In this document: positions 34,578-57,200 of the stretch, one piece after another
Layout of the letters: every line of letters begins with the position of its first letter
How positions within the stretch are numbered: position 1 is the first letter of the stretch
Assembly: GCA_023374045.1 (NCBI GenBank)
Contig: CM041782.1
Coordinates: 251,061,810 to 251,125,809 of the forward strand
Length of the DNA stretch: 64,000 nucleotides
Reading direction: 5' to 3'
Source: Limonium bicolor
Taxonomy: Eukaryota; Streptophyta; Magnoliopsida; Caryophyllales; Plumbaginaceae
Translations under genes and position numbers: made by a program
Notes under the pieces: generated by a model
The model's database searches: none
Seen by the model: the letters and a program-made list of their open reading frames with translations, nothing else
Told to the model about the DNA's origin: nothing

Positions 34578-34665
34578 GAACTCGTTCCATTGATCTCCTC
34601 TTTTTTTATTTACAGATTTAACAACCTAAACCTATCCAATCACCTTCGATCTCACCTAGGAACAA

Positions 34666-34840: not shown

Positions 34841-35089
34841 TCATTCACAACCTAGATGGTGAGATCAAAGGTCATTGGACAGTCCCAACAGGGACTATCT
34901 AAGACATACCTCTATCAGGTACATCTCAGACAGGTAATTCTATGTTTGAATTGATTTTCCATTGTTTTAATAGAAAAACAAAAATAAATTGAAACGTTTT
35001 AAATACCAACTTGATGAGTACTGGATGGTCAGCGCGAACAGCACAAGATAGAGAAGAGACAAGTAGACAGATGTTCTTCCACGTAGTAT

Positions 35090-35850: not shown

Positions 35851-36432
35851 ACACAATACAAGTACAATAAAATTAATAATATGCAACAATTATAACACAC
35901 GCAAGAATAATAACAACAAACAGCAACACTTACAACAATATTAATACACCGCCAACAATAATACGGATAGATAACTTCATCACAAAACAGCCATCGTAAC
36001 TCCAATGCTTACACAATGGTTATCCAAGCAAATAATGTAATATATTTCCACTTCAACCTGCGCAGTCGCCAAATAAACCTCAAACCAAATTTGTCTTCAT
36101 ATGAACCTCAAACTCATATATCATTGTATATGAGTAAGTCGACCTGATTTGGCATAACCAAAAACACAATTCAACCCGATATATGTTTTCAGATCTCGTA
36201 TGTTGACATGTAGCTTCTCAAAGCTTTTGTTATGTTTTTTGTTGCGAGTTGCATAATGTAATTCCAAAACACAATATTCACATAATGATATGTAAGTTAT
36301 AACTTATAAAGATAAAATAGCTAAAACCATATCATGAGTTAAACAAATTAATCAAAACTATAATATATAGTAAACTATAACATTAATTACATTAATCAAA
36401 ACTATAACATATATAGTAAACTATAACATTAG

Positions 36433-36800
36433 TTACCGGTGGGATTGATGGACGGCTCGGTATACAGAGGAGCGGACCACTGGAGGCGCGTGCGACAGAG
36501 GAGGGGGGAGGGCGGGCGAGGGGGGGGTGGGCGGGAGGGGGGGGGGGAGCTGTCGACACAGAGAGAGGAGGGCGGTGGAGCTGGAGGCTGTCGACACCAG
36601 AGAGGAGGGCGGTGGAGCAGCTACGGGGCGGTGGAGGAGCTCAAATGCGTTGTTGTTGTCGCCGCGACCGGAAGAAAGAGGCAAGTGGGGCGGTGGAGTC
36701 GAAGACGGTGGAGGGGGTGGTGGCTCGACGGCGGGAGTTCGGGTCGGGGAAATCGCTAGAGAAGAGAACGCGGGAGGAAGAAGAAAGAGGAAGAAGAAAA
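36433..36800 (-). promoter_or_regulatory. GC-rich island near the CACTA right end
   Basis: A sharp block of G-rich (plus-strand) sequence in AT-rich surroundings, next to the right subterminal repeats and upstream of the minus-strand transposase. Position fits the promoter or first exon of the transposase transcript. Open on both strands with low-complexity Gly/Arg or Ser/Pro peptides, so coding cannot be told. Confidence 0.5.
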
Positions 36801-36829
36801 GCTCGGGTATTTAATTGAATGACTTTAAA

Positions 36830-37155
36830 CGACGGTTATTATAAAAACCGTCGTTTAAAACCTTTGTCATAAAAGGAATAAACCACGGTTCTAAGGTAAC
36901 CGTCGTTTATAATACGACGCCGTACCCGATAAATGACGGTTGTATATTAAACCGTGGTATATGAATATTATATACGACGGTTAGAAAGGGAACCGTCGTT
37001 TATCTTATACGGAGATGAACTATAAACGACGGTTTCTGTAAAAACCGTCGTTTATATAGTGAGTCGTGCAACATATATGACGGTTCGTTTAGTAACCGTG
37101 GTTTATAAAATTTAAACGACGGTTTCACTGATAACCGTGGTATAAAGTCCGTCAT
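36830..37155. repeat. CACTA right subterminal repeats
   Basis: About ten AAACGACGGTT / AACCGTCGTTTA / ACCACGGTT motifs in both orientations, mirroring the left end. Confidence 0.92.
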
Positions 37156-39539
37156 TTAAAATCTTTTTTCTACTAGTGTGGATTTCTCAATTCAAGATTT
37201 ATTCAATATCATTACCGCCAATCCGCCATGCTCAAACAGAAGAAGATTATTCACTGCTTATACAGTTAATTAAGCTGAACCCCCTACTCCACATGATAAG
37301 ACGGAACCGTATGTTGCCTTGACCGAAACTAAAATTACATTTCAGTAGAATAAGTCATCTAAAAAAGACATGAAATGTTATATGCACAGCAGGATAGTCG
37401 CCCACGGAAAATCTTATGACAAGTTACGAACTCAATTAATTAACAAAATATATGAAGCAGTCGTAGCTCCCAGAATCAGAAGCAGTGAGATGTTTAGCCA
37501 TGGATATCAAGCAAATAGACGAATGTACTCATCAAACAAATAGACTAATGGAATTTGGGTACCGAATAAATACCAGGAGGTGGAAACTCAACATTTTCCT
37601 GTAGAGGGTTAAGACCATGAAAGGGGAAACAAATCAAACAAGATATCACACATTAGCTCCTGATTACAGATAGTCGCACCAAAATATAGATCAGAATGAA
37701 AATCGAAATCGAAAGATAAGCGCAGAAATCAGATACTACAACTCTATTTCGGTATGGATTTGCATTCGAATCTACAGTCAGAGGGATGGAGCAGGATGAA
37801 ACCACATCTTTAAACAGCAGGGAGCAATTTGCGATTCACATGACAGGAGCGTTCGGACACGTCTCGAACAAATAGGGTCTCTGTAGATGAACTCGAAAAC
37901 AGACAGAAAGTACATGGTTCCCATAATGCATTGAAATGTAATAATTATGGATAGAATTCCGCGAGACAGGTTTTAACCCAGATTGAGTGAACGGGATTAA
38001 CAGATAGAATATGAATGTTGGCCAAGAATCGAGACTCAGGGCCTCGATTTCAATCTCAGAACGAACATCTTCAAACTAGAAAAATAGTAGAAATCGATGA
38101 CAGTAATGTAGTAAGACAGTAGGAATGGCGAATGTCCTTAAAAAAACCGAAATCATAGAGGGGGAGTGCGGGACATGTTCTCACTCAATACAAACCGATT
38201 TCGAGCCCTAGAGCCTATGTTAGGTCTGGTACCCGTCGGTTTGATGCATCACAGAAAGAAAAGAAAAATAAACCAGACACGACAAGCAAGATAATGCAAG
38301 GGGAGGAGAACGATAATATGAAAGTCAATGAACAGAGACATACTTACTCATTAGATAAATCAACAAGCAATAATACCAACAACAAAAATGAAAAATGGAA
38401 GAGCTTCTGTGGGCAGATGTTCGATTCAGCAAAGAAAATATTTAGAGGAAATATGAGTGATCATGTAAATTGAGAGTAGCATCTGTGAAATCGATGGAGA
38501 AACAAGAAGAATTTTCTCCTCGTTTTCACTTCGAACCATATCCGTAGACTACAAAGTTTGTAACAGGTGGGATGATTGTAAGAAAAAAAGACCAGAGAAA
38601 TATTGATAGAGAATACTCGGGATTCTCAAAATGAAATCACACTTCCGTTTTTTTTTTGCTCTGTTCGTGAACTTCGGAGTTCATACCAGTCTAGGTATTC
38701 ACCAAGAGGCAGAAAAGGGATAGCATAAAACGAAGACAACAAAGTAATAGAGCCGGGAAGAGATGAAGGCTTATATTCGGGGCGATTACCGAAGCCATAT
38801 CTGCTTCCTCTTGGCCCAAACAGATGCAGAAAAAGAACAAAAACCGTGAACACCGAATGTAAGTGATATTCAGCATCGTCCTCAAGCCAGGGACATACAA
38901 AATGGAAGTTCGAAGCCCAGGTTTTGGAGTCTCAACAAATATACAACAGAAGGAAGAAGATACAGAGATGGAGGGTCGAATCTCCCTTCAAAACCAGTTT
39001 CCGATAGAGTTTAGCTTGCGCTGCCATCACTGGCTTACTTCTCTGGTAAGACTAAACCCGAAATTCGAACGTGGTGATCGAAAAGAGAAGAGAAAGGATC
39101 GAGCCAGTGGATGATGATTGAGCTTCAGGCGATGGAGAGGTGTAGATGGTGGGAATTTTTGGCGGAGGGGCAGAAGGTGGTGATGGAGCAGTGTTGCATG
39201 CGGAAAGTTGAAAGGTTGGGACGTGCGAATGTTTTTTTGGAATACAGACCGGGAGTTGGTGGCTGCTTGTCGTGGGATCTGTTTCTGGGTTTGGGATTTC
39301 AAATTGAGGAAGACAAGAGAATGGAATGTCTCAGACAATAGAGGAAGAAAGGAAAAAAACGTGGGATCTGTGTTGTCTGTTGGTCTTGGGATCTGCCCCT
39401 CCTTCGTTTTGTGAGAGATAATGATCAATATATAGAGAAAAGTAAGAGGAGTTAACGGTGGCTGGTTTGGATACAGGTTTAGGGTTTCACTTGGTTGCTG
39501 AGACCAAAAAGAAGAAGAGAAAAAAATGTGCCATAATTC

Positions 39540-39612
39540 CAATTACCGTGCTCGAACTCGGGACCTCCCCAGTCATTCAACATGTATTAACCAACTGCGC
39601 TACTAATTCAAC
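39540..39612 (-). other. tRNA-derived stretch with RNA polymerase III A and B boxes inside the LTR
   Basis: Minus strand TAGCGCAGTTGG (39602-39591) fits the A box and GAGTTCGAGCAC (39559-39548) fits the B box, with tRNA-like spacing. A T-run (CATTTTTTTC on the minus strand) follows at about 39527. The homologous part of the other LTR (51590-51730) has a degraded A-box-like GTGTAACTGGTTAGTG. Could be a SINE head or tRNA relic; not a foldable tRNA by eye. Confidence 0.5.
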
Positions 39613-40203
39613 TCAATCTGAGAGTGTGGAACAAGATAAATAAGTGCTACTCAAATTGACTGAATTCTGTTAAACCGCTAGCATTTTAAACGGAAACGTA
39701 GATTAAGACGAAATGATTTTATCAATGAAGATGAATTGTTTCTTTTGAATATTCATGAATAAACAAAACATAATAATAATAACAATAATAAAGTACTCAA
39801 TAATAATATGTACATAAAATAATGAAATAGTACTAGGGAAATGATGATGATAAAATAAAAGTAAATGCTAGAAGACAAATAAGTAGCGATAAATATGATA
39901 AAACAAATAAGTAAACAAAATGAAGCTAAAAGATGAATGAACAAATAGACAAGCAATAAAGGTAGAATAAATAATAAGATAAGTGAATAAAACAAAAGGG
40001 AGAGGTTATAAAATCGTATTGTCGTTGGAAATTCATTTTTGCAAAATTGTGTTTTTATGAAATGCTTTGAAAAAGACTATAAAATGATGGTCTCGCTTTG
40101 GCACGCACGTCATTACGTTTTGACAAAGAAAGGCGACGACCCCTCTTATTGTATTTATGATTTTGGAATTTGCTTTATGGGGTGAGAATTTTTGGTGTCT
40201 ACA

Positions 40204-40220
40204 GATGGCTCCCTTTGATT
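40204..40220 (-). other. Polypurine tract of the non-autonomous element
   Basis: Minus strand AATCAAAGGGAGCCATC immediately before the 3' LTR start TGTAGACACC. It sets the orientation. Confidence 0.8.
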
Positions 40221-40329
40221 CAATTCTGCAATAGAAGACTTGCAGAATTGGATCAAGGTTGACGGGACGCCAAAAATTCTCACTGTGGTTTAGTGGTGCA
40301 TTAGGATGCGACCGTGAGTGTATGAAGGT

Positions 40330-40955
40330 GATTGAAAGTACGAGGACTTATGACGAGCCTCAAATAGACCTCTTGACATCTAACCCTAGGACTTATGATG
40401 AGCCTAGGATACTAACAACAGGGTTGGTTTAGAGTGCATGAGGACTTAGGAGTGCCTCAACTGGACCTCTTGATATCCAGTCCTAGGGCTTACGACGGGC
40501 CTAGAATGTGATTGAGAGTACGAGGACTTAGGAGTGCCTCAACTAGACCTCTTGATATCTAGCTATAGGACTTATGACGAGCTTATAATACTAACAACCC
40601 GATTTGGTTTAAGGTGCACGAGGGCTTAGGAGTGCCTCAACTGGACCTCTTGATATCCAGTCCTAGGACTTATGACGTGCCTAGAATACGATTGAGAGTA
40701 CGAGGACTTAGGAGTGCCTCAACTAGACCTCTTGATATCTAGCTATAGGACTTATGACGGGCCTATAATGCTAACAACCCGATTTGGTTTAAGGTGCACG
40801 AGGGCTTAGGAGTGCCTCAACTGGACCTCTTGATATCCAGTCCTAGGGCTTATGACGGGCCTAGAATGCGATTGAGAGTACGAGGACTTAGGAGTGCCTC
40901 AACTAGACCTCTTGATATCTAGCTATAGGACTTATGATGAGCCTATAATACTTTG
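40330..40955. repeat. 180-bp tandem repeat with two related half-units
   Basis: Blocks beginning GTGCAYGAGGRCTTAGGAGTG recur at about 40435, 40614 and 40793. Each full unit has two half-units that share AGGAGTGCCTCAACT and differ in CTGGACC...CCAGTCCTAGG against CTAGACC...CTAGCTATAGG. Partial units flank the array. Confidence 0.9.
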
Positions 40956-41204
40956 ACGGAGTTGTACGAAACTCGCTGTGGTGAAAGCTTGGTCTGAAGT
41001 TGTTTGTGGTGGTAGATTGGTTTGAGGATGGCTTTGATTGTGGATTGATCCGGGATTGGATGCTTTTCGGTTGTTTTCATGAGGGATGTGATAGTCGAAT
41101 GTTTTTTGTTGTTGTGGCCCTTGACTTTGTCAGTGTGGGACTTGTGCTTTGGTTTTGCTTTGATAGTCTCGCCCGATGTGCACTATAGTTTCGGGATTTT
41201 ATAG

Positions 41205-42160
41205 AACTATTGGCTCCAGAGTTTGGAGATGGCTCCGGTATGGCTCCTGAGTTTTTTTTTGTTTTGGTTTTGGTGATTTGGTAATCAGTCTTTGAATGGA
41301 TGTTTTTTTTTAAAAAATGAGTGACTTTTTAGAACTCGACGGTTTCGATATGATTGGGTGACTTCGATGAGATTTGAGGGCTCCGGTATGATCGGATGGC
41401 TTTGGTGCGGTCAGATGGCTCCGGTTTGATTTATGATCCCCTTGTGAGCAACGGCTCTGGGATGGTTGGTGGGTTTCGATTTGGATTGAGATTTTGGGTC
41501 GAGTAGTGAGTCGATGTGATTTATGTCCTTTGATGTGGTTGACAATTTTTTTTGGTTGTGGATGAATGGTTTTGGTATGGACTTTGAATCGAGTGGTGGG
41601 TCGATGTGATTTACTGTGGCTGACAATTTTTTTGTGGATGAATGGCTTTAGTACGGTCAGTTTCAGCTTCAGATTCCTCGAGAGGGCTCCGGGATAGTTC
41701 GGGATGGCTTCGGGGAGGCTACAAGATTGCTCTATTTGATGATAGTGGAGAACAAAAGGGGAATCTTCTTTTGAGGTGGTCGCACCCTGGGCGGGCTGCC
41801 TACGTACTCAATTTCGTATTGAGATCAGACCATATGTAGTTCGAAACTCTGTAGGCAAGACCCTGGTGATGAAATAGATCTGACGTGGATTTGAGGTGGC
41901 TCCCGTATTGTTCTCGGACTATTAGGATACCCCCTGTGTAGTTCCAAGGATGGTTTTAATGTTAGATGATGGCTCCCGCATGGCTCCAATTTGGTTCTGG
42001 ATATGGTGTTGATGAAGCTCGAGCATGACATTGGATGGCTCCAGAATTGTCTTCGTACGGCCTCGGATGGCTTTAGTTTGGTTCGAAGTAGCTCGAGGAT
42101 AACCCAGGATGGCTCCGAGATGGTTCGATGTAGCTTGATGATGGTCTGGGATGGCTCCAG
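41205..42160. repeat. Dispersed GATGGCTCC motif cluster
   Basis: GGATGGCTCC or close variants (TGGCTCCGG, TGGCTCCAG, TGGCTTCGG) occur about fifteen times. On the minus strand this is GGAGCCATC, the last nine bases of the element's polypurine tract. Confidence 0.8.
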
Positions 42161-44740
42161 TTGACATCTTTTGATCTATAGATATGCTTCAACAACTGCA
42201 ACTGAAGTCGATTTTCAGCGAGACTAGGTAGAGTTCTCACCAGACGGTTGTTGATGATGAAATGATAAATGCAGACATTGAGTGCTAAATGAGATGCAAA
42301 ATGCATGTGCAGGTTTTTTTTGAAGAGAAGGTATGGTCCTATCTCTATTACTACGGGGTTTACGAGTATAAGACATCTTCGGTCCGATCTTGAGTGACTG
42401 TTGAACTGAAATGAGTGAATCGCTTTTCCTCTCATGGGGGGGCGCGGGTCAATCTCTCGTGAGCGTAGCTTGTGTGCTATCAGTGTAATGGTACTCTTAA
42501 TGCTCAGAGCAGTATTTTCTCTATAATTCCTTTTTGGGGTTTTGGACTTTTTTATCCTTACAAATTCCTCACCTGCGATGGGGTAGGCTGTTTATGATTT
42601 GGTGCTTCGATCTAAGAGTCACTCACACTCGAAAGACCTTGTGAAGTAAGATCGCTCTCATTCGCTCATGGTCCCTTTAGTATGATATGGGACATGTTGA
42701 TAACAAGCACAAAACTTATGATTCATGTTTCAGGTCCGGTACTTTCAGTTAACGCTCATTGACTTACGAGTCAGAGGTCTTTTATTAGGTTATAACGGGG
42801 CTAAGGGGTATGATGCATGTCACATGGGACTGGAGGATTTGTTTGGGAGTTGTGGAGCTTTTGTGCAATGGAGAATATGCTTCGCCTTTGCCATGGGTGG
42901 AATGATTAGATGGGTTTTGATAACCTTTTGCTGGTTTCTTCGGGACATCATTGGTCCTTTTGATTTGGATTTCTCCTTCTTGCCTCTTCTGATGTACGGT
43001 TTGAACCTTCTTCTCATTTTTCTTTTTTTGAAATTGCACTTGGCTCATCGGTTTCCTCAAACGTTCTTTGCTTTGTATTTCGGCTTTCAGCTTTGGAGTT
43101 GCATTGACTCATCGATCTTCTTGAACATTTCTGGTGTTCTTTTTTGGTGTTTGGCTTTGGAGTTGCATTGAGTCGCTGATTTCTTCAAACATTTTAAATG
43201 CTGTTTTTGGGAAAGATGGTGGGGAAGAGACCATGGCTCCGGCTCCTTCGAGATCCTCTATTGCAAGGGCAGGCAAGTATATGTGGAGTGGTATATTATG
43301 GAGTTTTTTTTTTTGAAAAAGAGTTTTTCATGAAAGGTTCAGCGGGGCTCACTAAGGGATTATGTACATGGCAGTCAAAGCTTTTTGGTTTTGTGGGAAT
43401 TTTTATTCCTAAGTGCCTCGTCATTCTCATTAGTCAATGATTATTTTCTTACTATTCTCGGATCTTTGCATGAATCACGGTTTGTATCCCGTTTATCGAC
43501 ATAGATCTCACTATGAATTGTGCCTCTCCATGTGCTGAAGGAAAGCACAAGTCGCTCGTGGTTTTACCTCGATTGGCTCTCTCTGCCTTCCCTCATCGCT
43601 CAGTGGATTGTCCAAAATGTTCACTTGAAATTCAAGGGAAAATACCGCTCTTCGCACACTACTCACTTGATTTGTGGTGCTGATTTTGATTAGACCCTTG
43701 TGTTCATTGATGGGCCAAGAGTTAAGCGGTTCACGCACTATGTTCAATCAATCTCCCACGATTTTCCCAAAGATGTCATTTCGATATGGGAGTATGCAAA
43801 TGCGATTATCTACCATGCGATGTATTGTAGTAATACGAAATTACTACATATAGGATGCATGAAATGCTGAAAATGGTGAATGGAAATGGTTGATTGAATG
43901 TTTTTTTTTTTGTGTTTGTTTTGTCTTTGGATGCAATGCATGAGTGGTAAGGTTATTACTAGTCTCGCTTGAGTCGAATTTAGCTCGCAGCACATGAAGC
44001 TCATCCTATCATCGTTGGCCCTGAAGGTGGTATAGCTATTGGGCGTGATCGTGAGAGAAATTGTTTTGGAACGATGTACAGCTGGTTATTGGCTCCGGAG
44101 TTTTGAACTTTTAGGGAGTGACAACTCCCGCATGGTGGTCCTACGATATGACACATTCTTTCCCTTTTAGTCACTGGCGCGCATGGTGATTTTGATTGGG
44201 TGTGTGGTGTGGTGACAACAAAACACATGGTTGCGAAATTTTCTGAGGTGGACAAGAGTTGTGCATGTTTGACGAATTTGAACTGACCGAGAATGCATGG
44301 GACTTTTTTGCAATGAATGCAATGCATGCGGTTTTGCTTTGTGCTCGATTGTATTTACTGGTGTGTTTGTTCAGGGGACACCTTCCGTAGATACCATGAA
44401 TTTTCACCCCATAAAGCGATTTATGAATATGCAACTGTGAGGGGTCGTTCCTTATCCGTTCTCTTCTTTACACGCGCATGCCAAAAGAAACCAAGTTTGG
44501 AAAACAATTTTGAAAGCGTGTGTTTTCAAAGTGGCGGATTTTCTCAATATGGATTTTGATGCTCGGTCATTCGCAAATAAAATAGGGAGTGGGGAACCCT
44601 ATACACATTGATCTGAATAAATTCAAAGGGAATGTATAAACCTATACATGGAGTCTATTCAGAAATTGACAAGAGAGAAGAGAATGTTAGGGGAAAACCT
44701 ATACATCATCAATCCTAAAAGTCATTAAAAGGGGGAATTT
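42161..44740. other. Interior of the non-autonomous element, no recognisable gene
   Basis: About 2.6 kb. Several frames of 60-148 codons exist on both strands (for example 42725-43171 plus), but none shows a retroelement or other known motif and both strands are open in the same places. I see nothing supportable as a gene. Confidence 0.55.
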
Positions 44741-44769
44741 TTAGCTGAAGTTCCTCTGAACTCTTCTGG

Positions 44770-44960
44770 TCCGTCTTCGGGCTTCTAGCTTACCGCTCAC
44801 GCTCGAGCTCCTGGTTGGCTACTCGCTCGTCTTCGGGCTTCTAGCTTACCGCTCACGCTCGAGCTCCTGGTTGGCTACTCGCTCGTCTTCGGGCTCCTGG
44901 TTGGTAGCTTGCTCGTCTTCAGGCTCCTGACCGGCTGCTCGCTCACTTTTGGGTCTTGAC
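44770..44960. repeat. 54-bp tandem repeat
   Basis: Block starting CGTCTTCGGGCTTCTAGCTT at about 44772 is repeated at about 44829, followed by shortened copies ending CTCCTGGTTGG and CTCCTGACCGG. About 2.5 full units. Confidence 0.88.
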
Positions 44961-46843
44961 CGACTGCTCGTCTTTTGGGCTCTTGCAGCGAAGCAGTGCT
45001 GTGATCAAACAAAACGGGTCTGGTGTTCCTCTGATTTTCAACAGTTTGAACTCGAACAGTCGTTACCAGCCTCCATGTCGCTTGACTCGGGCTGGTACAA
45101 CTCTGATTTATGCTCGAATCGCGTTGTCCTCCTTCATGTGCTACACTTGCTCCGACGTGGGGAATGAGGGATATTTTTGAGAAAGGAAAGGTGAATGATC
45201 GAGCACAAAATCTCATGTAAAAAAAAAATCCACCACTTTTGTGAAAACACAAAATGACTAGTACGCTCCACGGTAATGACCGCTGCTCTTGAAGGTGAGG
45301 AGAACTTCAGAAATAGCGGATCACAACATGGGGACTAAATCATTTATTTTGAAATACATTTGTGAAAATCAATTTTTGAAAACTATTTTCGAAAACTATT
45401 TTGAAATGATGTTGAAAATTGTTGTTTGTAGAAAGTAGGTTTTTCAAAATCTATTTTTGAAAATTGTTTTGGAAATAACATTTTAATGAAATAAAGGTTT
45501 TCAACGATGAAGTGGCGGGTCTTAAAACCCCAAGTGTTTATGAGTAGAATTTGGGTGAAATTCTAAATTAAACGAGCTCGTAAAACAGCTTTAGGAGATA
45601 TGCAAAAGAGAATTCCGAACGTTTTGAAACAAATTGGTTTGAAGAAGTGATTTGCACACATGTATAGCATAAAGTAAATCGTGGCCATTGTTCGATGTGG
45701 AGCTGTGAGTGTTAATGTTGGGATAATCACTTTCCAGGTCAATTATGATTCTGTCTCACCGGGGGAACCATCGTCCCTTCACTATCATCTCTCGGGGTTT
45801 TTCTCTGTTATGCCTTTATGGGGCACGTTATCAAGAAAGTCCGGAGTGCTTAAGTTTGAAAGGTCAGGACACCCGAGATGATGAGGAAACATACGCCACG
45901 GCCAGTGATGATCCGACAACATGCTCACTTTTCGGGAAACTCGGGGAAGTACTGCATGGGAACAGGTCTCTTGTCATCTGCACGGTCAGGTGTGTCTAAA
46001 GTCCAAATTATTCACTGACTACGTTGTGCCATGTATGGGTATCTGGTAAATACGAGATCCTCTATGGACGTGTAGCGTGACATCGGGCTTTAGAGACACC
46101 CGTGGTGCAGAGGACACTTGGAGAACTGAGCCCATGCAATCTTCAGGGTAAGGCAGAGGGTGGTCAGACAGTCGTCATACAAGGGGGTGACTACCCATAA
46201 AACCCGTCTTAGACACCGGACCAGGTAGCTGGACACTGAAGGCTCAAAGTTCATTATATGCTGACTTCGACTCGGATAATGGAGGATATTTTTGGATCAT
46301 GAGCTCAAAGCGTTGGTCGGAGACCGTACCGCCTTGTGGGTTTGTTCACTGAGAGAGTGACCCTAGCTCATGGGAAATCAACCGTGGACCGGTTGGGGAT
46401 CCCGTGACATCGTGGGTAAATCGGGTGACACAGAGGAATGCATGTCCTAAGCTACCCACCCCATGCACCCCACAATCGCAATATAAATATGAAAGTAGTA
46501 AATAAACAAAAAGAAGTTAGCACCAACCTATGTACTAAGTGTTTTATCTTGAGATTAGTGATTCCAAATTTGTTATTGATTAACCTAAAGGGAAGTTAGC
46601 TTCCTTCACACCTAAGTGTCTCTTTCTAATCGTGAGCTAATTATTAACCCAATTGTTGCAATGTTTGTTGAGGATCTAACAAATCCTATCTGTCCTCATC
46701 AGATACACACTCAAAGTGTGGAGTAGAATAATCCTAGGGGCTTTGAAATGAATTTCTTGAAGGTTTTGAAAGAAGTGGGGAGGTCCTGACAATTTTGAAT
46801 GGAGTTCAGTCTTCCTTGAGTTTGAGAAAAACTTACTCAAGTT
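44961..46843. other. Remaining interior of the non-autonomous element
   Basis: About 1.9 kb with no recognised gene. It includes an A/T run of TTTTGAAAA-type repeats (45340-45500). In element orientation this is the 5' untranslated part next to the primer site. Confidence 0.5.
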
Positions 46844-46862
46844 TTCCCCAGCAGAGTCGCCA
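46844..46862 (-). other. Primer-binding site of the non-autonomous element
   Basis: Minus strand TGGGCGACTCTGCTGGGGA, 3 nt inside the 5' LTR. It resembles the TGGCGACTC...GGGGA primer sites of plant LTR elements, with one extra G. Primer tRNA not named here. Confidence 0.7.
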
Positions 46863-46865
46863 TTT

Positions 46866-49800
46866 TGTGGAGGGTGATTTTTCGGTATGAGGGGGGTTTA
46901 TCTAAATATGGACTAGCTGAGAATCCTAGATCCTAGAAATGCCATTCTGTGGAGGGTGAAAACCCGTTGTTCTGGCATCCCTCAAATACCTACTACATCG
47001 TCCGTCTTTCCCAGAAAGCATTAGGGGAATGCTAGTGAGCATTATACCCGCTCTCAATGGGCTCCACACGGACTTATGCCTCTATAAGGCGGAATTGACT
47101 AGAGTCGCCACCTAGTTTGACCTAAGATACTAGGAAGGAAGGGAAGGAGGGTTCTAAGAACCATTGGTTGACTCTAAATTTGTTGCCTATGGATAGGAGT
47201 TATCTGGTCAGATCAGAGATTCTATTGTGGGTTCGCACTGGGTTACACCCCTCGGAAGCGGCAATGACCACAACCTTGGATTGGTGCCCGAGGAAATCTC
47301 AGTCTCCAATTGTCGAGATTACCTTCTTTCAAAACCTTTTTTAGAGAGATTCATTTAAAGCCAAGGATAGGATTAGGACAAAAAGAGAGAAAGAGTGTAT
47401 GTGGCGAGCTTTTCTGTCAAGCTAGCGCTCAGAAGAGGAACTAGTGAATTCGGCTGAGTATGGAATGAAAGATTTGAAGTCTGATTTTGAGGGTTGAAGA
47501 AGTCGAGTGTTTGTGGGAGTAAGAGGGGATTTGAATGTTTGATAGACATGAATATCGCCTAGAGTTTGGAAAAGGTTTTTTGGATTGGAATGGGTCGCAC
47601 CCTAGATGGGCTGCCTACGTACTCAACTCCATGTTGAGATCAGACCTTACGTAGTTCACGGTATTTGGGTTTTGGAAGTTAGATGTTTGTGGAGTTTGAA
47701 GATATCTGAGGTGTTTGAGATTTAGAAGGGTTCGAAGTTTCGAGAAGTTTTGGGTTTGGGATGATAGTCTGTGAGACGCTGGGTCTGTGAGACATTTGAG
47801 ACCTTGAGATGTCGAAGTCTATGAGACGGTCGGATCTGTGAGACGCTCGGGTCTGTGAGATGCTCAGGTCTGTGAGACATTCGAATCATTGGAATAACAA
47901 AGTCTGTGAGACACTCGGGTCTGTGAGACATTCGAATGTGCGGGGGTAATAGGATTTTGAGGGATGATTTGAGTCCAAGAAGTTAGGAATTATTTAGGAT
48001 TGAAATGAATTTATTAGATCGGAATTTAAAATGGGTTTTTGAAGTGAATGAATTTTTGAATTGAGTTGAAATTGGATGAATTTTGAATGAATTGGAATTG
48101 AATGAATTTGAATTGAGATGAATTTGGAATTGAATTGGATTTGAATTGAATGGAATTGAACTGAGCTGAAATGGGTTTGAATTCAGTTGAGTTTGAATTG
48201 GATTTGAGTCGGGATTGAAAAAAATGGGCCGGGTCAAAGTTCGAATTGATTGAGGTAGGGTCGGTCATGGTTGGACCGGGTCAAAGTCAAAGTTAAGATT
48301 GGTCAAAATTGGACTAGGTCAAAGCTAGGTCAAGGGCAAAATTTGGTTGGTCAAAGTCGGACCAGGTCAAAATAGGTCAAGGTCAAAGTTGGACCTGATT
48401 GGGCCTTGGTCAAGGTTTGGGCTTTGGTTAGGTCTTTAGGTTGAATTGGGCCAGATCGGGCTTTTGGGCCGAATTGGGTTGGAGTGGCCTCTTTTGTTTT
48501 ATGGGTTGAATTGAGTTTTTGAATGGGGCCTTGATTGGGATTTGCATCGAGTTCTAATTTTTGACCGGGTCAACATTGAGCTCATAGGCCAAATTGGATG
48601 ATGGGCCAAGTTAAAATTGGGCTAGATTTGAAACTGGGCTAGTCTCCACCTGATCTTGGGCCAGAATTAGGCCTTGGGCTTGATTTGGATGTTGGGCTTG
48701 ACATTTTTTTTGGGGCCGGATCTAAGCATTGAGCTTTTTTATTTGAAATAATTTGGGATTTTAAGAAATGGGCCAAAGATGGGGCTTATTGATTTCGGGC
48801 TTGATTTGTGAGATATTAACAAGTGAGATTGGTCAATTTATTGATTTATTAACTCTTGATTACGGGTGTGTTGAAGGCAAAGGAGGATTCCACCCACATA
48901 AAACGAATGAGAGACCCGCTAGGCATGGGGTGGTTTCGCATCCTAAGCCCTCCTAAAATAGCCTTAAAGGCTTGTTTTTTGAAGTTTTTGTTTTTATAAA
49001 TATAACGGTGATTTAAGTGTTTTCTGAAGTTATAGGAGATTATTACCCCACGAAACGAATGAGAGACCCGTTAGGTGTGGAGCGATAATACATCCAAAAC
49101 TTTTCTGTCAGTTTAAAAGGTCCTAAGGGCAATAGCTAGGGCTTAATAGTACTCAAAATACAAGGAAATGAATTGAAATTACAATAAAATTGAATGTAAA
49201 TCGTGAATATGTACAAGAAAAATCAAGAGCAATTAACATAACGAATGTCAGACCCAAACTGAAAACAAAAAAGGCAAACTGAACTTAAAGGATTCTCGTT
49301 GTTCTTGAAGAACTAGTTAGAGCCTAAAGTTACTAAACTCGAACAAAATTAGAGCTAAAATACAACTTAAAGACCAGAAGGAAACTTCTTACTGCACAAA
49401 AGAGTGTCAAGTACACCATTGCTAACCTTAAACAAAATTAAGCCTAAACTGAGTAGATAATTCATCCAAATCGGCTTCTGATTATTTAATTCCCCTCTTT
49501 CTATTGTTTTTTTTACCTCTTTTATCGACTAGGGACTTGAAATGAGGTTATAACTAATCCTTATCAATAAGACAAAATAAGCATCAAAACTGATTATTAC
49601 ACATTAGGCCCTATCCTCTCTTTTCGCTATTTATTCCAGGCTCAAAAAAAATTCAACACGCGAAAGTAAACTTATCACAATCGATGTCATTAAGGAACGA
49701 AGAACTTAAAAAAAAAAAACTCACCCGACTCTTAGCTAGGTAATTAGAGATTTAAAACGAGAGCACAAGAACACGGTATGCACTTCAAACAAATCATGGC

Positions 49801-52515
49801 GACATGTTAGCAGACTGGGAGAATTAGAGATCAGGCTAGATCAGAAGTAAATACCCGAAAGAAAACCACGGGGATTCCCTGAATGTTTGTTGGTTGTCCG
49901 CGTGAGCTCTGAATCTCCTAAATCGAGTTGACTGTGGAGGCATGTGAGAGGAGATTTGAGTACGATTTGGACCAGACCAGAGAAACCGACATGATCCTTT
50001 GTTCGTCCACCATGGGAGAAGAACAGAGATCGCGTAGATACATCTCTTGTTCGCCAGTTCTGGGGTTGTAAAATCACCGGTGGATGAGAATGAAGTAGAC
50101 GAAGCAGGTATATCCCTTGTTGTCGGTCGGTTGCAAAATTGTCTTGATGAAGAGAAACGATAGAGGCTGGGCGTGTGTATCCCTTATTCGCCAGTTGGGC
50201 TCCAAATTACCGTCTATAAACATCTGAGGCAGGCGCAGAGCGTTTGTCTTTGTTTTCCAGGTAGGTTGCAAGTTACCGTGAACAAGATAAGGATGTGCAG
50301 TGAGGGTATCGTCCGTAGATGAAGAGGAATGAAGAGATCTGTCCGCTTTCTCCAGTTCGTTTGCCAGCATTACCATGTGAAGAAAATGAACATGGCAGTG
50401 GGGAATGTATGTTCCTTGCTCGACAGGTTGGTGTGAATGAGATGAGAGGATAAGTTGGCACAGAGCTTGCAGTTCCTTGTCTCCAGTTTTGGGTTGTAAA
50501 ACCGCGAGTGAAGACAAGAAAAGATGCAGAGCTTGAGTTCCATGTTCAACAATGGCCAGCGGGTTGCAAAATCGCCAAGAAGAGAATGAAGGGTATGGGA
50601 GCAGTATACTCTATGCTCTTCAGTTGGGTTGTAATATTACCGATGTTGAAGAGACTTAAGGCGACAGAGATGTATATATTTTATTTGTCGGCTGGAATGA
50701 AAAGAAAGAGGAAGCAGAGCATGAATGCTCCTGGTTCAACAACCGGAGTGAAGAGAATGACGTAACGAAGCATGTATACTTCCTGTTTGGCATCTGGAAT
50801 GAAGAGAATGACAAGAAGGTGCAGAGCTACATGTATTTTGTTTGCCCGGGGCGATGGTGAAGATAATGAGGATATGGAGAGCTGTATGTATCTTGTTTTG
50901 CCAGTTTGAAATGGAAAAGAAATGAAGGTGTAGAGGTGGTCTGTTCCTTGTTTGTGTGAAAAGAGAATGAAGCAGGGCATGTATTTGCGGTTTGGTTATA
51001 TTTTATCGTGAAGAAGAGAATGAAGAAGGAGGTAGAGGAGGTACGTCCCTTCACTGCCAGTTTGGATGCAAATCTGTAAGAGAATGAAGAGGGAGCTGTA
51101 TGCTTCTTGTTCACCCGTCAGTGGTGTTGAAAAATTACCAACGTGAAGAGAATGAAGAGCGCAGAACTCGTTTGTCTCTTGTAGCCACTTTAGGTTGAGA
51201 ATTATCGTCGTACAGGAAATGAAGATGGCGGTGCAGTATTGATGTTCCTTGCTTCGCCGATGAAGAGATGAAGATGGCTCAGAGCCTGGGTGTTTGTTTT
51301 GTTCGATGGTGAAAATGTTTTTTTGAAGAAGAAGGGTCAAGGCTTGGAAAACAATGAGTGATGGGAGTTGAGGCGGCGGTTATTTTGTTATTCTTGTCTG
51401 AAATTTTTATATAATGATCGATCAATCAAAAGGCATCGGGGAAGAAAGAAAAACTGGGAGGAGACGGCTACTGTTGTTGTTTTTATAAGCAAATGTTGGG
51501 GATTAGGGTTTGATTGTGAGCAGATCAACGGCCAAAAATGAGCCATCACAATGTGGGCTGAGGAAAAAAATAAAACACGTTCCGAAAGCTTGGTTAGAAT
51601 TCCAGACCGCTGGGTCTGTCCGTTTTCATATTAGCCGGCTAACTTGGACTAAAAGAACAAATAAAAAAAACTTCCTGCTCTCAACACAAGATCAATTGGT
51701 TCCAACAGACACACACTAACCAGTTACACTAATGACAAAATTCAGTATACAAACGTAAGAAATGATACAAAACTTCTAAATTGAACTGAATAATTCTATA
51801 TAAAAAATGCTAGCATTCTAAATGGAATATACAGGAAGACAAAAAGAGTTTAGTGAAGTAAAATGAATTGTTTTCTTTTTTGAAAAGTCATGAAATAAAA
51901 CGAAAACATCATTAAGTATTAAACAAATGAATTAAAGTAACAATAAGTACATGAAATAATGAAATAGTACTACTATCTTAATATACAAGTGAATGTCGTA
52001 AAAAGGAAATCAAATTAAATATGTACGAGTGATGGTAAATAGGATTTAATAAACAAGTAACAAAACAATATAAAATGAAATACAAGCAACTTTATCGAAT
52101 TAGCAACGAAACAAAATAATAACAGTGAAAAACGCATAAATGATAGAAATAACAATGATAATGATGACGGTAAAAGTAAAGAAACACTAATAGATAAGAG
52201 ACATGTAAATATAACGATAAATGAGATGAATTAAACAAGCAATGAATAAGATATAATAATAGAAAAATGACTGGCTGAATAAGTAATTAAACCAAAATAG
52301 ACCACAACGAAAAATGATAGTAAAATAAGCACTAAACAAAGACGGACGGGTTTGGGACCGGATGCTTTGAAAGATGATTTTAAAAAATTGTCTCAAAATG
52401 GCAGTTTTAGCTTAGTGCACACATGAGTAAGTGTTGAAAAGAAAGGCGACGACCCTCTTATTTTATTTATTTATCTGAATTTTGCTTTATGGGGTGAGAA
52501 TTTTTGGTGTCTACA
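46866..52515 (-). repeat. 5' LTR of the non-autonomous element (5650 bp)
   Basis: In minus orientation TGTAGACACC (52515) to CCTCCACA (46866). Its first and last several hundred bases match the other LTR closely (for example 46866-47350 with 26242-26760). The middle diverges, and 49990-51330 holds a minisatellite absent from the other copy. The GGTCAA and TTGGGCC tracts recur at 48230-48700. Confidence 0.9.
49990..51330. repeat. Minisatellite of about 110-130 bp degenerate units in the 5' LTR
   Basis: Recurring order: GAAGAGAATGAAG..., GTAT-TCCTTGTTCGCCAG, GGTTGCAAAATTACCG. About ten divergent units. Frames through it are periodic artefacts. Confidence 0.75.
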
Positions 52516-52586
52516 GGGTGCACCTCAGAGGCAGCCTGTCCTTCATGTCATAGACCGTGACGGGTCCGGTTCTAACTCCGGCCCAG
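52516..52586 (+). pseudogene. End of gag exon 3 of element 2, after the insertion
   Basis: Begins with the right GGGTG copy and continues the gag frame to LHVIDRD and a predicted donor CCCAG|GTAATT at 52586/52587. The matching LHMVDRD in element 1 sits at the same distance from its donor. This short tail proves that the sequences on either side of the 26 kb insertion belong together. Confidence 0.82.
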
Positions 52587-53621
52587 GTAATTATCCGAAC
52601 CTTTAATCCTTGGAGTAGCATGACTAAGTAGTAGAGTAACTGTTTGAATGAATGCATGAGTAAATAAAGTGAAGTGTGTATTAAGCATGAAAAGAATTAG
52701 TTGAAACTAGTACTCACCGTAGATGAAATTTATAACCATAGGAAGCTTTAGTATCTGTTATCCGATACCGGTAAACCTGAATCAAGAAGAGTTCGACATC
52801 ACCAACCACTACTACACCAACGAACAGTGTCAGGTCATCCGACCAGGTATGATCTTATTAAGGGGATACCTGACACCCGAAGCGCAAATCTCAATCATCC
52901 GACGATGCAACGAGCTAGGAACGGGTCAAGGAGGATTTTACTCACCCGAATTCCCCGGTGGAGCGAAGATGAAGCTGAAGATGATGTGCTTGGGAAAGGA
53001 TTGGAATCCTTATACCAAGACATACCAAGAGACACGAACGCAAGATGGAGCAATGCCACCGACAATACCCCCAGAGTTTCAGACACTTGTCACACAAGCA
53101 GTAGAACTTGCACAACAATGCGAACATGATCCGATCCCCGCACTTGAGGAGGACCTTTGTATCGTCAACTTCTATAAGAAAGAAGGACGACTTGGGTTGC
53201 ACCAAGACAAGGATGAGACAGCGGAATCTCTTGAACAAGGAGTGCCCGTAGTGTCTTGGTCCATTGGTGATGACGCCGTATTTTTGTATAGCGAGCAGAA
53301 GCGTGTGGACCTCGCACAGAAACTGGTATTGAGATCAGGAGATGTCCTAATCATGGGTGGAAACTCTAGGATGCTGTATCACGGGATCAACAAGATCAAG
53401 TTGAATACGGCACCACCGGCAATAATCAATGCCACACACATGAAACCAGGATGCCTGAACCTTACCTTTAGGAAGTATTAAATTCATAACATCATGTAAT
53501 GTGTTAGTAACGTGTATTAGAGACACGGTATGTATGATGGATGGTTTATCAATAAAGAGCAGTGTTAATTTAATTCCACTTGTGTCCACCATCAATACTT
53601 ATCCAATTGTGGCTTCAATAG
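52587..53621 (+). other. Predicted gag-pol intron of element 2 containing AlkB
   Basis: GT at 52587 to AG at 53621, 1035 nt. An inner acceptor TAG|GA at 52741/52742 (155 nt from the donor) opens AlkB. Gag exon 3 ends with one base of a codon, and both acceptors supply two, so both joins keep frame without a stop at the junction. Element 1 has the same plan. Evidence is consensus plus frame conservation in two diverged copies. Confidence 0.75.
52723..53481 (+). CDS. AlkB-type 2-oxoglutarate/Fe(II) dioxygenase of element 2, intact frame
   Basis: A 252-codon frame from ATG 52723; if spliced from gag, the exon starts at 52742 (residue 7). Family role: oxidative removal of alkyl groups from nucleic-acid bases. 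Motifs (residues from ATG): LLRGYLTP 45-52; KMMCLGKDWNP 86-96; the NFY-x-(7)-LH strand with iron ligands H160 and D162 in LHQDKDE; SWSIGD 178-183; GDVLIMGG 206-213; distal iron ligand H220 in MLYHGI; clamp N246, T248, R250. The first clamp position, Arg in element 1 and in AlkB generally, is Cys244 (TGC, one CpG-type change from CGC). This would weaken 2-oxoglutarate binding. Length is right for a complete catalytic domain. From memory it resembles plant ALKBH1-like proteins. The frame is intact while neighbouring gag has stops. Confidence 0.92.
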   Translation: MKFITIGSFSICYPIPVNLNQEEFDITNHYYTNEQCQVIRPGMILLRGYLTPEAQISIIRRCNELGTGQGGFYSPEFPGGAKMKLKMMCLGKDWNPYTKTYQETRTQDGAMPPTIPPEFQTLVTQAVELAQQCEHDPIPALEEDLCIVNFYKKEGRLGLHQDKDETAESLEQGVPVVSWSIGDDAVFLYSEQKRVDLAQKLVLRSGDVLIMGGNSRMLYHGINKIKLNTAPPAIINATHMKPGCLNLTFRKY

Positions 53622-54269
53622 GTTGTGGACTCGGTACCGAAGGTAACCTGAGTATCCTCACCGAAGCACAAGCCGGCAAAAGCGGCACCATCTTAACGGG
53701 AACCTTCCCAGTGAACGGCATTGATGCCAATGTGCTATTCGACTCCGGCGCCTCTCACACATTCGTATCACCATCTTTCGTGAAGAGGTTGAAGCTAGAT
53801 GCGGATGAGCTACCGAATTTTGTGGTTACTCTCCCATCGAAGGAGCAAGTAAAGTGCACCAAATATTATCAATCAGCCACCATCGAAATCAAAAACGAAA
53901 CGTTTCCCATTTCCTTCATCGAATTCAATGGATTGGGATTCGACTTAATCATAGGAATGAATTGGTTGGAGCGGCACAAGGGTAGAATCCTCTACGCCGA
54001 GCATCGACTGCTGCTCAAGAGTCCTTCTGGGGTTACTGTATCTTACCGCCAGAGACCGAGAGAGCCTTCGAACACACTCATATCTGCTTTGGCTATGTAC
54101 CGGGAGCTCAGAAAGGGCCACGAAGTATATCTGTGTTATGTACAAGACCTGGAGAGAGATCCAGAGTTCAGTGATGATGTACCGATTGTATCTGAATTTC
54201 CTGATGTATTCCCTAAGGAGCTACCCGGCATGCCACCTCAGAGAGCAGTAGAATTTGAGATTGATCTTT
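53622..54269 (+). pseudogene. Protease and start of pol of element 2, cut by LTR C
   Basis: After the predicted acceptor (53621/53622) the frame has LSILTEAQ, then the aspartic protease with active-site [10 protein letters not shown] (about 53735-53765), [11 protein letters not shown] and the linker to RT (VSEFPDVFPKELPGMPP). It stops at EIDLL where LTR C begins (54270). No frameshift is seen in this 216-codon piece. Function of the protease is to cleave the Gag-Pol precursor; RT and integrase are missing here. Confidence 0.88.
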
Positions 54270-57200
54270 TGTAACACCCCATCCAACAACTAACACATAA
54301 CAACAATCTGCAGCGGAAAATATACTTCATCACATTACTTAACTCGTTGGTGTTACACGCCATTAACCACCAACGTGGCTAACAAGGCTATTACATATAC
54401 ATTGTACCAGTCTGATGGACTAGATTCCTGAGCGACTACACATTACTGACCCTTCCATCAACAATAGAAACCACATACACCTTTCAACTGTACCGAGTAT
54501 TCGTAAACTAATGCCGATAACAATTTCGGTCTTACTACACCTACTGTATACATACAACTTAAATGATTACCCATGTACAACGACTACCCCGTCCTACTCT
54601 CGAACAGCTTCCAGCTGCTTGTACCTGAAATAGGAAAAGAAGAGAAAGGGTGGCCCCCAAGGGGCTCAGCACCTTTGCTGGTATGGTAATCCCGCAGCCC
54701 ACATGCTACCGGGCCACGCACAACTAATTGTCGTCTTAGCATGCGGTTGATTATATTTAAATCATGCATGCAACTGTAAACACACAACACACAACAATTC
54801 GCCTCAATGGGCTCAATAAACGGATAATACATCCTTATTTGATAAGTCACTCATGGTATTCATTATCCCTAGAGTGTTTCTCCTCTAATGGAGCTACTTC
54901 CTTAATAGACGACACTTACCCATAAATCGGGTTATCCTTAAACGCCTCTTATCACAAACTGGGATTCATATCCATGATCCACATACTCCACATTTTACCA
55001 CATATAACATACATCACATATCCACACATAACAACAATTTTCACGTATCAACGTGCACATAATAACATCGCAATAGGAATTGCATTACATCAACAACACA
55101 TAACATAACGGGAACGGTTCTCTTAGGAACCGACCCAAACATAGTTAATTCACTGGTGAGCCCAGAGGATGATGTCCCCCCCATGATAAGCTCATTATAC
55201 AACACTCATTACCGTCCTAATAGTCGGACGAGTAACTTAAGTTAAGATGGTTCGGGTTTTGTGGCCCGAACACACCACACAAACACATGTTCCCCCTAAA
55301 CCGATCATAAGTAAGAATAGCTAAGCTTTGGAATAAGCTAATGGGAGATCATAACCCGTGAGGGAAACAACCATAACAGAGAAAAGGGTAAGGCTAAGAA
55401 GGATACCCACTCCCAAACAACGCGCGACCGGCCAAACCGGATTCCTCACCACTGTTAGTACATACTTTTAGATATTAGTTAGAACCCCACTATGGAGTCT
55501 ATCACATCTACACACCTTACAGTATTACAACTGGGTTAAACATACAAGGGAGATCCCTACATTCACATACACATATCACACAATTAACACACGCATAGCC
55601 GTGGTTAGAACGTCCCAAGGTTCGGGTCGTTTAATCCAAATACCAAACTCTCATGTGATCCTAGACTCAGTTAACTAAGGTTAACACTTCCGAGGTTAGA
55701 TGGTATCGGAGTTGAACACGCCACATAAATGAATTACTGTAAACTCATTACATGTTTAATCTTACAACGTGGCAAACATACAGAAAAACACATTGGCATA
55801 CAAGCCGGTGTAATCCGGTAGGACACAGGTTGCAAGAAAACCATACCTGTCACCGGAGTCCACTTTATCGTGTCCACTTATGTTCCTCGAGAAATCCTCG
55901 AACAACTGATAACATTACATGTATTTTTATTAACATCGGGGTATCATGATTGTTTAAAGTCTAATGCTTATAACTTTTCCCCGTTAACTTAGTTACATAA
56001 CTTCACTTTTTAACTTGTTTTACTTTTACATTTTAATACATCTTTTCCCCCTAAATTGTCATTATAACTCACCTAACATGTCTTAAACAACCTTATAACA
56101 TCATTACTAATCAATCCCCATCATTACATATCATTTTATAACCTTAAACAATGTTTTTGGTCCGACCGACCTTACTGACCGACCCTGCACAAGGTCGGTC
56201 CATTCCAGAACACTTTACCGTCAAAATTTCTACTCCGACCGACCTTGTAAGTTTGGTCGCATGTTCGGTCCATTCCCGAGAGTTTCTTCCCTTTGAAAAT
56301 TCAGGCCCGACCGAACTTGCCAAGTCCGGTCCCATGTTCGGTCGATTCCAGAAACTTAATTCGTACACAAATTACAAGCCTGACCGACCTTGCAAGTCCG
56401 GTCCCCAAGGTCGGTCCGTTCCAGAAAATAATTCTCGTAGGGTAATCTGGGCTCGACCGACCTTGGCAAGTCCGGTTGCAAGGTCGGTCTGCTCCAGACC
56501 CTTATTTTCCATTGCCCATTTAACTCCAAACTTCACCTCATGTATCCTAATATGTCCTAACCTCATTTGGGCACTTCAAACACATCTTTAGCCATGTACT
56601 AAACTCCTTAAATCACACACCAAAACCATCTTATCATTCACAAATTTCTTACAAAATTCTTAGCACTTGGAATGTTTTCTCCTTAAGATATCTAAGTGGT
56701 ATTTCACCAATAATGACCACTATACCAAGGTGTTTCCTCTACACCTTAACATCATCTCTCAAACTTCTTTTCTTACTAACTAAATCTCCTTTTTCACATC
56801 TTACCTAAACATCATTTCTTCCTTGTACATCAACATTCCTAAACCTTAAACAAACTTCTCCAAGACTTTATTACATCCCAAAAACACTCATTGGATTCCT
56901 AGAACTTCCAAGATAATACGAAAGTCCTTGTATCACTCTAAATCACCTTAATACATGCTTTCTTCCCTAGTAAAATACTTGTTCACCTTTAACACTTCCT
57001 AGTTCACCAAAACTTGTTTAAATCACTTAGAACTTCTTATACATTTCCCAAATTTTGCCATAGCTTCTCTTGTATATCCTCACATCCAAACACTTAGGTT
57101 TTTACCTTATTTCATTCAAGAACACCTAAAAATCCATCAAGAGTATTCTCACCCACAAAACTTCACCAAATTTACACTACATCACAATATAGTGCATAAA

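What the first reader, a model, noticed from the sequence alone, without database searches (positions are those of the whole stretch)
52723..53481. A plant LTR retrotransposon carries a full AlkB dioxygenase domain between gag and protease
Seen: an intact 252-codon frame with the AlkB iron triad (H160, D162, H220) and most of the 2-oxoglutarate clamp, flanked by gag zinc knuckles and protease of the same element. Known: AlkB proteins remove methyl groups from RNA or DNA; some plant RNA viruses carry an AlkB domain; an Arabidopsis ALKBH9-type demethylase has been reported to help a heat-activated retrotransposon. Inference: the element captured a host ALKBH1-like gene and may use it to erase methylation or damage from its RNA or cDNA. 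I do not recall this domain being described in plant Ty3/gypsy elements.
Basis: partly seen in the sequence, partly recalled or inferred. Interest (0 to 1): 0.95.

Follow-up and report, generated by a model that had tools for sequence, protein, structure and literature searches.

The report
Retrotransposon splices AlkB enzyme onto Gag
A very common jumping gene in this plant genome carries a conserved nucleic-acid demethylase (AlkB) as an optional exon, which splicing appears either to join to its coat protein or to skip in favour of its replication enzymes; a demethylase in plant jumping genes was already known from one orchid group, in another form.

Summary
The frame is a real, complete ALKBH1-type AlkB domain inside a Ty3/gypsy element (weak chromodomain match). 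The window holds two diverged copies, A (+) and B (-). The genome holds at least 4,743 places with the A-type AlkB core; all 20 copies I hand-picked from a gag list carry AlkB. Amino-acid constraint resembles that on protease (dN/dS 0.20 and 0.18).

Gag has three exons. One 5' splice site after gag exon 3 faces two in-phase 3' splice sites: AlkB (Gag-AlkB, then stop) and protease (Gag-Pol). Both predicted junctions occur in the genome: gag|protease at 9+12 places, gag|AlkB at 1+6 (families A+B), controls 0.

Copy A is dead: two nested insertions, gag stops, a lost clamp arginine.

AlkB in plant gypsy elements is already published (Phalaenopsis, ALKBH5-like, Ogre/Tat, separate ORF2). This is a different AlkB branch and expression strategy, so probably a second capture. 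Delivery of AlkB into particles through Gag, and its substrate, are inferred, not shown.

The parts
24840..25496 (+). copy A gag exon 1 (capsid), ends at phase-0 5' splice site CAG|GTAAAT
   Evidence: Pfam Retrotrans_gag E 3.4e-16; boundaries
25598..25877 (+). copy A gag exon 2
   Evidence: flanking introns 25497-25597 and 25878-25962 are absent in several spliced copies of the family
25963..26241 (+). copy A gag exon 3, first part, with zinc knuckles (contains stop codons in this copy)
   Evidence: zf-CCHC 20.8 bits, at the cut-off
26242..52516 (+). nested LTR element inserted in gag exon 3, TSD GGGTG (26237-26241 / 52517-52521)
52517..52586 (+). copy A gag exon 3, rest (first 5 bases are the TSD), ending at the shared 5' splice site CCCAG|GTAATT
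   Evidence: removed at the predicted boundaries in L088
52742..53481 (+). AlkB exon (phase 1), ALKBH1-type 2OG-Fe(II) dioxygenase, own stop TAA; this copy has Cys at clamp position 244
53482..53621 (+). non-coding gap between AlkB stop and protease 3' splice site, with block ATCAATACTYAT shared with B
53622..54271 (+). protease exon (start of pol), phase 1, in frame with gag exon 3 when AlkB is skipped
   Evidence: RVP_2 E 5.6e-27; boundary; junction copies L059-L067
54272..58895 (-). LTR of a related minus-strand element inserted at the protease/RT border of copy A
   Evidence: TGTAACACC...GGTATTTCA ends; similarity to the LTRs of A and B
7654..11790 (-). copy B 5' LTR (TGAAATACCCC...TGTTACA), PBS-like TGGTATCAGAGC at 7648-7637 (tRNA match recalled)
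   Evidence: inner end read by eye
6777..7418 (-). copy B gag exon 1
   Evidence: Retrotrans_gag E 5.3e-18
6439..6691 (-). copy B gag exon 2, phase-1 end AAGG|GTGAGA (one search drew it one base short)
6015..6356 (-). copy B gag exon 3 with zinc knuckles, ends CCAG|GTACCA
   Evidence: (zf-CCHC_3 below cut-off)
5109..5844 (-). copy B AlkB exon, frame-broken in this copy
4356..4955 (-). copy B protease exon (start of pol; end set for the search)
1585..4400 (-). copy B RT, RNase H, integrase and C-terminal chromodomain, frame-broken
   Evidence: RVT_1, RT_RNaseH_2, Integrase_H2C2, SH3_Tf2-1; rve and Chromo below their cut-offs
1..1274 (-). copy B 3' LTR, cut by the window edge; 1270 of 1281 aligned positions identical to the 5' LTR (2 mismatches, 7 gap openings)

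Best explanation
This is a high-copy Ty3/gypsy retrotransposon, probably a chromovirus, whose gag-pol gene is interrupted by introns. One 5' splice site at the end of gag exon 3 is used with two alternative 3' splice sites. The near one joins Gag in frame to an ALKBH1-type AlkB domain that ends with its own stop, giving Gag-AlkB. The far one skips AlkB and joins Gag in frame to protease-RT-integrase, giving Gag-Pol. Retained introns 1 or 3 end the frame within a few codons and would give capsid or Gag alone. SHOWN: anatomy, splice-site conservation, purifying selection, and genomic copies bearing both spliced junctions. INFERRED: the AlkB is an active demethylase, as its residues and fold suggest; fusion to Gag carries it into the virus-like particle, where it removes methyl groups from the element's packaged RNA or its single-stranded cDNA, protecting templates or escaping m6A-dependent restriction.
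For: AlkB identity. Fixed in the family: of 20 copies hand-picked from the 150-row gag exon 1 list, 20 have AlkB in place, 19 full-length, 8 of those 19 with intact frame. Of 48 copies picked by AlkB, gag exon 1 is upstream in 45, protease downstream in 46, all five pieces found in 37, best matches all on one strand. 4,743 places match the AlkB core with <=2 mismatches, control 0. Selection: dN/dS A vs B 0.144 over 235 codons; 0.197 AlkB and 0.181 protease among the 19. Splicing: gag|protease junction at 9 places in family A (4 exact) and 12 in family B (8 exact); gag|AlkB at 1 (A, 2 mismatches) and 6 (B, 1 exact); reversed-pattern controls 0 in all four searches. Introns 1 and 2 are also gone in L061, L063, L064, L067 and L090; the gag|AlkB copies L088 and L092 have intron 2 spliced and intron 1 kept. 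Splice dinucleotides in the 20-row set (19 plus copy A): GT kept in 18 of 18 rows with letters, AlkB AG in 19 of 20, protease AG in 19 of 19. Frames run into introns 1 and 3 stop after 4-8 codons in A and B.
Against: No RNA or protein was measured: junctions come from DNA copies, so isoform ratios and translation are unknown. Spliced copies are few (10 places in family A against 4,743 AlkB places). All 10 A places were read, but only 3 of the 18 B places. L063/L064 are 99.3% identical, one lineage. L059 and L060 lack the AlkB block yet keep introns 1 and 2, and L062 keeps intron 2, by spacing, so they could be an AlkB-less subfamily. The 20 gag-list copies lean to the less decayed (19 of 20 have no stop in gag exon 1); of the 8 loci that came, L057 shows no AlkB within its stretch and L051 (copy A) does not reach it; L063, which lacks AlkB, is also on that list. 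A-B silent sites are near saturation (pS 0.63), so 0.144 is rough. Enzyme activity, substrate and packaging are untested. 11 of 19 gag-list copies have a broken AlkB frame. No gag relative was found in the protein database among proteins of 0.55-1.75 times its length.
Confidence: 0.72

Rival explanations
1. AlkB is an independent ORF translated from its own ATG (52723), as ORF2 is in the orchid elements, and the introns matter little to it.
For: ATG opens the frame in copy A and is present in 39 of 48 copies. Orchid precedent.
Against: ATG missing in 9 of 48 copies and not seen in B; conserved 3' splice site 19 bases downstream; gag|AlkB spliced copies in two families.
Confidence: 0.1
2. AlkB inclusion is mainly a splicing brake that limits Gag-Pol; the enzyme is a passenger or a simple C-terminal cap of Gag.
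For: The AlkB exon ends in a stop and protease lies in another frame behind it, so inclusion lowers Gag-Pol.
Against: Amino-acid constraint and kept iron and clamp residues: a brake needs only splice sites and a stop.
Confidence: 0.13
3. Copies lacking AlkB are ancestral AlkB-less elements, not spliced RNA copies; AlkB came as an inserted unit.
For: L059 and L060 keep introns 1 and 2, L062 keeps intron 2 (by spacing), and all lack the AlkB block.
Against: Joint loss of introns 1 and 2 with the AlkB block in L061, L063, L064, L067, L090; gag|AlkB copies with intron 2 gone (L088, L092); the more distant family B carries AlkB.
Confidence: 0.05
4. Old host-gene fragments hitch-hiking in repeats, without element function.
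For: Copy A is dead; 11 of 19 gag-list copies have a broken AlkB frame.
Against: 20 of 20 picked copies have it in the same place, 4,743 places in all, same splice architecture and dN/dS 0.14 between families A and B.
Confidence: 0.02

Closest known systems
Phalaenopsis gypsy elements with paALKBH5-like ORF2 (PMC9289625; parts 1-5 of 7 read)
   Same: Plant Ty3/gypsy element, high copy, carries an AlkB (PF13532) domain with cofactor residues; shown there to demethylate m6A RNA in vitro
   Different: There: ALKBH5 branch, 565-aa separate ORF2, Ogre/Tat lineage, 25.5-kb element with 6.4-kb LTRs, gag-pol as a single ORF, found only in Phalaenopsis among 121 genomes. Here: ALKBH1 branch, spliced onto Gag, weak chromodomain match, 4.1-kb LTR in B, gag introns
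[quoted passage not shown]
   Same: Plant gypsy element whose transcripts are partly spliced to allow the polyprotein
   Different: One intron inside pol; here three introns in and after gag and a two-way 3' choice that yields an enzyme fusion
EVADE/BARE short-GAG splicing (PMC12786077, passages read)
   Same: Splicing sets the Gag to Pol ratio
   Different: EVADE is Ty1/copia, BARE too (recalled); splicing there makes short Gag, here it makes Gag-AlkB or Gag-Pol
Rice ALKBH1 (5xeg/5xoi)
   Same: About 50% identity, same fold and active site
   Different: A host gene. This genome's own ALKBH1 has two introns in the domain, while the element exon has none
AlkB domains of plant RNA viruses (named in PMC9289625 part 5)
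   Same: A genetic parasite carrying an AlkB domain
   Different: RNA viruses; not compared by sequence here

Membership tests
AlkB / ALKBH1-type 2OG-Fe(II) dioxygenase | PF13532 domain and AlkB fold | tested here: met
   E 5.5e-43 over profile 1-194; TM 0.90-0.92 to OsALKBH1
AlkB / ALKBH1-type 2OG-Fe(II) dioxygenase | HxD...H iron ligands and RxxxxxR clamp | tested here: met
   Triad in all 25 aligned rows. The 19 gag-list copies, read in register with copy A, all show H, D, H and both Arg, though 11 of these frames are broken. Copy A has C in place of the first R
AlkB / ALKBH1-type 2OG-Fe(II) dioxygenase | demethylase activity | not testable with these tools
   needs an enzyme assay
Nested within host plant ALKBH1 (recent host capture) | falls inside the host ALKBH1 clade | tested here: not met
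   apart from hosts with 100/100 (rows hand-picked). With E. coli AlkB as root the 25 host rows still group 100/100, but the element-type rows no longer form one clade; that root branch is very long
Ty3/gypsy LTR retrotransposon | gag, PR, RT, RNase H, INT in that order between LTRs | tested here: met
   copy B; the integrase core match (rve) is below its cut-off
Chromovirus | C-terminal chromodomain after integrase | tested here: inconclusive
   Chromo E 0.0024 at the right place, 18.2 bits, below the curated cut-off 25.1
Tekay/Del clade | RT phylogeny within Tekay | not tested
   no reference set used; resemblance of long LTR and PBS recalled only
Orchid AlkB gypsy (Ogre/Tat, ALKBH5-like) | ALKBH5-branch AlkB in a separate ORF2 | tested here: not met
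   best match ALKBH1; gag|AlkB junction copies; the orchid sequence itself was not compared
Splicing-regulated retrotransposon | element RNA has been spliced at the predicted sites | tested here: met
   indirect, from spliced DNA copies; no RNA data

The most novel reading that the evidence does not exclude
A retrotransposon that puts a nucleic-acid demethylase into its own particles by alternative splicing onto Gag: a particle-borne eraser acting on packaged RNA or nascent single-stranded cDNA, in an ALKBH1-type lineage kept by mobile elements separately from host genes.
Probability: 0.45. Interest if true: 0.92.

Novelty: new variant of a known kind. Interest (0 to 1): 0.82.

Why it matters
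AlkB now appears in two kinds of plant gypsy element with different AlkB branches and different expression strategies, which argues that methylation of element RNA or cDNA is a recurring pressure on plant retrotransposons. The splice-choice architecture gives a clear, testable way to see whether a retroelement arms its particle with an eraser, and how an element can set Gag, Gag-enzyme and Gag-Pol levels by splicing.

Tried and rejected
Rejected: AlkB starting at ATG 52723; host pseudogene reading; membership in the orchid family. Led nowhere: gag exon 1 against the protein database, no hit at E <= 0.001 among 564 candidates; AlkB relatives in IMG/VR (two loci with one 29-residue match each; none) and in GTDB genomes (none). 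The profile search added no element-type AlkB among its 120 listed rows by my reading; P0122, ranked next after the four known ones, is an Artemisia protein with a repeated domain and groups with host rows. P0002, P0003, P0004 and P0007 group with A and B, but their sources are unnamed and their context could not be read, so they are not claimed as element-borne. Host guess: the 2.92-Gb size fits Limonium bicolor (one table passage of PMC12310839; chromosome number recalled); not tested. Limits: copies L003-L050 were chosen by AlkB similarity (8 by the tool, 40 of the other 142 rows by me), so their AlkB dN/dS of 0.14 is biased; the gag-list set (L068-L087) was fetched to reduce that, and leans to intact gag. 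The reading of B intron 2 was one base off and is not used.

Full report
OBSERVATION. The frame at 52723-53481 is open for 252 codons and is a full AlkB domain: PF13532, E 5.5e-43, whole profile. By sequence the nearest solved structure is rice ALKBH1, E 1.1e-70, then E. coli AlkB. A model built on a 25-row alignment has mean pLDDT 89 and its best PDB fold is OsALKBH1 with TM 0.90-0.92. The iron triad is complete. One of the two clamp arginines is Cys in this copy and Arg in the 19 gag-list copies compared.

TWO COPIES. Copy B lies on the minus strand between LTRs. The 5' LTR is 11790-7654, the 3' LTR 1274-1 is cut by the window edge, and 1270 of 1281 aligned positions agree with 2 mismatches and 7 gap openings. 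B has gag, AlkB, protease, RT, RNase H, integrase and a weak chromodomain match (18.2 bits, cut-off 25.1) in order. Copy A is on the plus strand: gag from 24840, then a nested 26.3-kb element (26242-52516, target duplication GGGTG), then the rest of gag exon 3, AlkB and protease up to 54271, where an LTR of another element begins. A's gag exon 3 has stop codons. Copy A is dead; its AlkB frame simply remains open.

INTRONS. Reading the two copies side by side shows GT-AG introns at the same places: intron 1 phase 0, intron 2 phase 1, intron 3 phase 1. The AlkB exon begins at 52742 in A and 5844 in B, in phase with gag exon 3. Protease begins behind another AG (53622 in A, 4955 in B), in the same phase. 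One 5' site therefore faces two usable 3' sites. AlkB ends with its own stop, and I saw no 5' splice site just before that stop shared by A and B (by eye). If introns stay in, the frame ends after 4 (A) and 8 (B) codons in intron 1 and after 6 codons in intron 3 of both.

SPLICED COPIES IN THE GENOME. The model predicts exact junction sequences, which I searched in the whole 2.92-Gb assembly with up to 3 mismatches. gag|protease: 9 places in family A, 4 exact; 12 places in family B, 8 exact. gag|AlkB: 1 place in A with 2 mismatches; 6 places in B, 1 exact. The tool's reversed-pattern control gave 0 in each of the four. I read all 10 A places and 3 of the 18 B places. In L061, L063, L064 and L067 introns 1 and 2 are also gone; so they are in L090 of family B. 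L065 keeps intron 1. L066 keeps intron 1 and part of intron 2. L088 (A) and L092 (B) have intron 2 spliced, intron 1 kept, and gag joined to AlkB. L091 (B) shows the gag|AlkB join, but its upstream part did not match. L059 and L060 keep introns 1 and 2 and L062 keeps intron 2, by spacing; these may be a subfamily that lost AlkB. L063 and L064 are 99.3% identical and count as one lineage. Two pairs of B places lie within 60 kb of each other and may not be independent. Such copies are what reverse transcription of spliced RNA leaves behind, so I take both outcomes of the splice choice to have happened in vivo. Their proportions in RNA are not known.

SELECTION AND SPREAD. A protein search scored 150 copies from 52,649 candidates, 93-100% identical to A; these counts are floors. 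A 26-base AlkB core with <=2 mismatches occurs at 4,743 places, control 0. To avoid choosing copies by AlkB, I hand-picked 20 of the 150 rows of a gag exon 1 search; 19 of the 20 have no stop in gag exon 1, so they lean to less decayed copies. All 20 carry AlkB in place, 19 full length (L079 has its first 128 bases), and 8 of the 19 have an intact frame. Of the 8 loci that came, 6 show AlkB; L057 does not within its stretch, and L051 is copy A and does not reach it. L063, which lacks AlkB, is on the same list. In the 19, dN/dS is 0.197 for AlkB and 0.181 for protease. A against B gives 0.144 over 235 codons, with silent sites near saturation. The 48 AlkB-chosen copies give 0.140, biased downward. 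The 3' AG of AlkB is kept in 19 of 20 rows, that of protease in 19 of 19 with letters.

ORIGIN. This genome's own ALKBH1 gene (L089) has two introns inside the domain; the element exon has none, which fits capture through spliced RNA. In unrooted trees of rows that I picked, the element-type proteins (A, B, P0002, P0003, P0007; P0004) are split 100/100 from 35 host rows and from 38 host rows including this genome's own. With E. coli AlkB as root the 25 host rows group 100/100, and the element-type rows lie outside them but do not form one clade; the root branch is very long, so this is unsure. The five element-type rows of the alignment share three residues unlike hosts (D177, R187, Y212 in exon numbering). 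The donor is unresolved.

MECHANISM. Shown: AlkB is an exon of this element family under amino-acid constraint, and genomic copies carry both spliced junctions. Inferred: Gag-AlkB enters particles and the enzyme acts on packaged RNA or single-stranded cDNA. ALKBH1 proteins are reported to demethylate 6mA in single-stranded or unpaired DNA, and the human one also RNA (PMC10469495, abstract and passages). m6A on plant LTR element RNA is reported to hold it in stress granules, and demethylation to release ONSEN RNA (PMC12786077, passages).

PRIOR ART. PMC9289625 (parts 1-5 of 7 read) describes AlkB in Phalaenopsis gypsy elements, ALKBH5-like, in ORF2, Ogre/Tat, with activity in vitro; its screen found the domain in two Phalaenopsis species and in no other of its 121 genomes. 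My searches of the open library listed no paper on an ALKBH1-type AlkB in a retroelement or on alternative splicing of AlkB in one; subscription papers and preprints are not covered. PMC12786077 (passages) says plant LTR elements generally lack introns, with Ogre and EVADE as notable exceptions. Novelty is therefore a new variant: probably a second capture, with a new expression strategy.

Noticed in passing
window 10512-11790 vs 1-1274: LTR pair of copy B differs by 2 mismatches but 7 gap openings: a very young insertion, and an excess of indels that may be assembly error; B's frame breaks may partly be artefacts.
   Followed up: partly
window 53482-53621 and 5108-4956: The non-coding gap after the AlkB stop is more similar between A and B than 300 shuffles (z 6.0) and diverges little among copies (0.047); it holds a shared ATCAATACTYAT about 20-25 bases before the protease splice site, perhaps a branch point.
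   Followed up: partly
window 32533-34625 (-): CACTA-type transposase (Transposase_21, Transpos_assoc; type recalled) inside the nested element 26242-52516.
   Followed up: no
window 62144-63511 (+): A 456-aa open gag frame of another Ty3-type element.
   Followed up: no
window 40324-40952: Tandem repeats with a spacing of about 180 bases (self-match).
   Followed up: no
G000, places: A host ALKBH1 query finds AlkB frames of many lengths (such as 252, 259, 268 codons) besides exon-like host hits; more element-type subfamilies than A and B may exist, not resolved.
   Followed up: no
L059, L060, L062: A diverged subfamily that lacks the AlkB block yet keeps upstream introns; it may be a lineage that lost AlkB through a partly spliced RNA.
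   Followed up: partly
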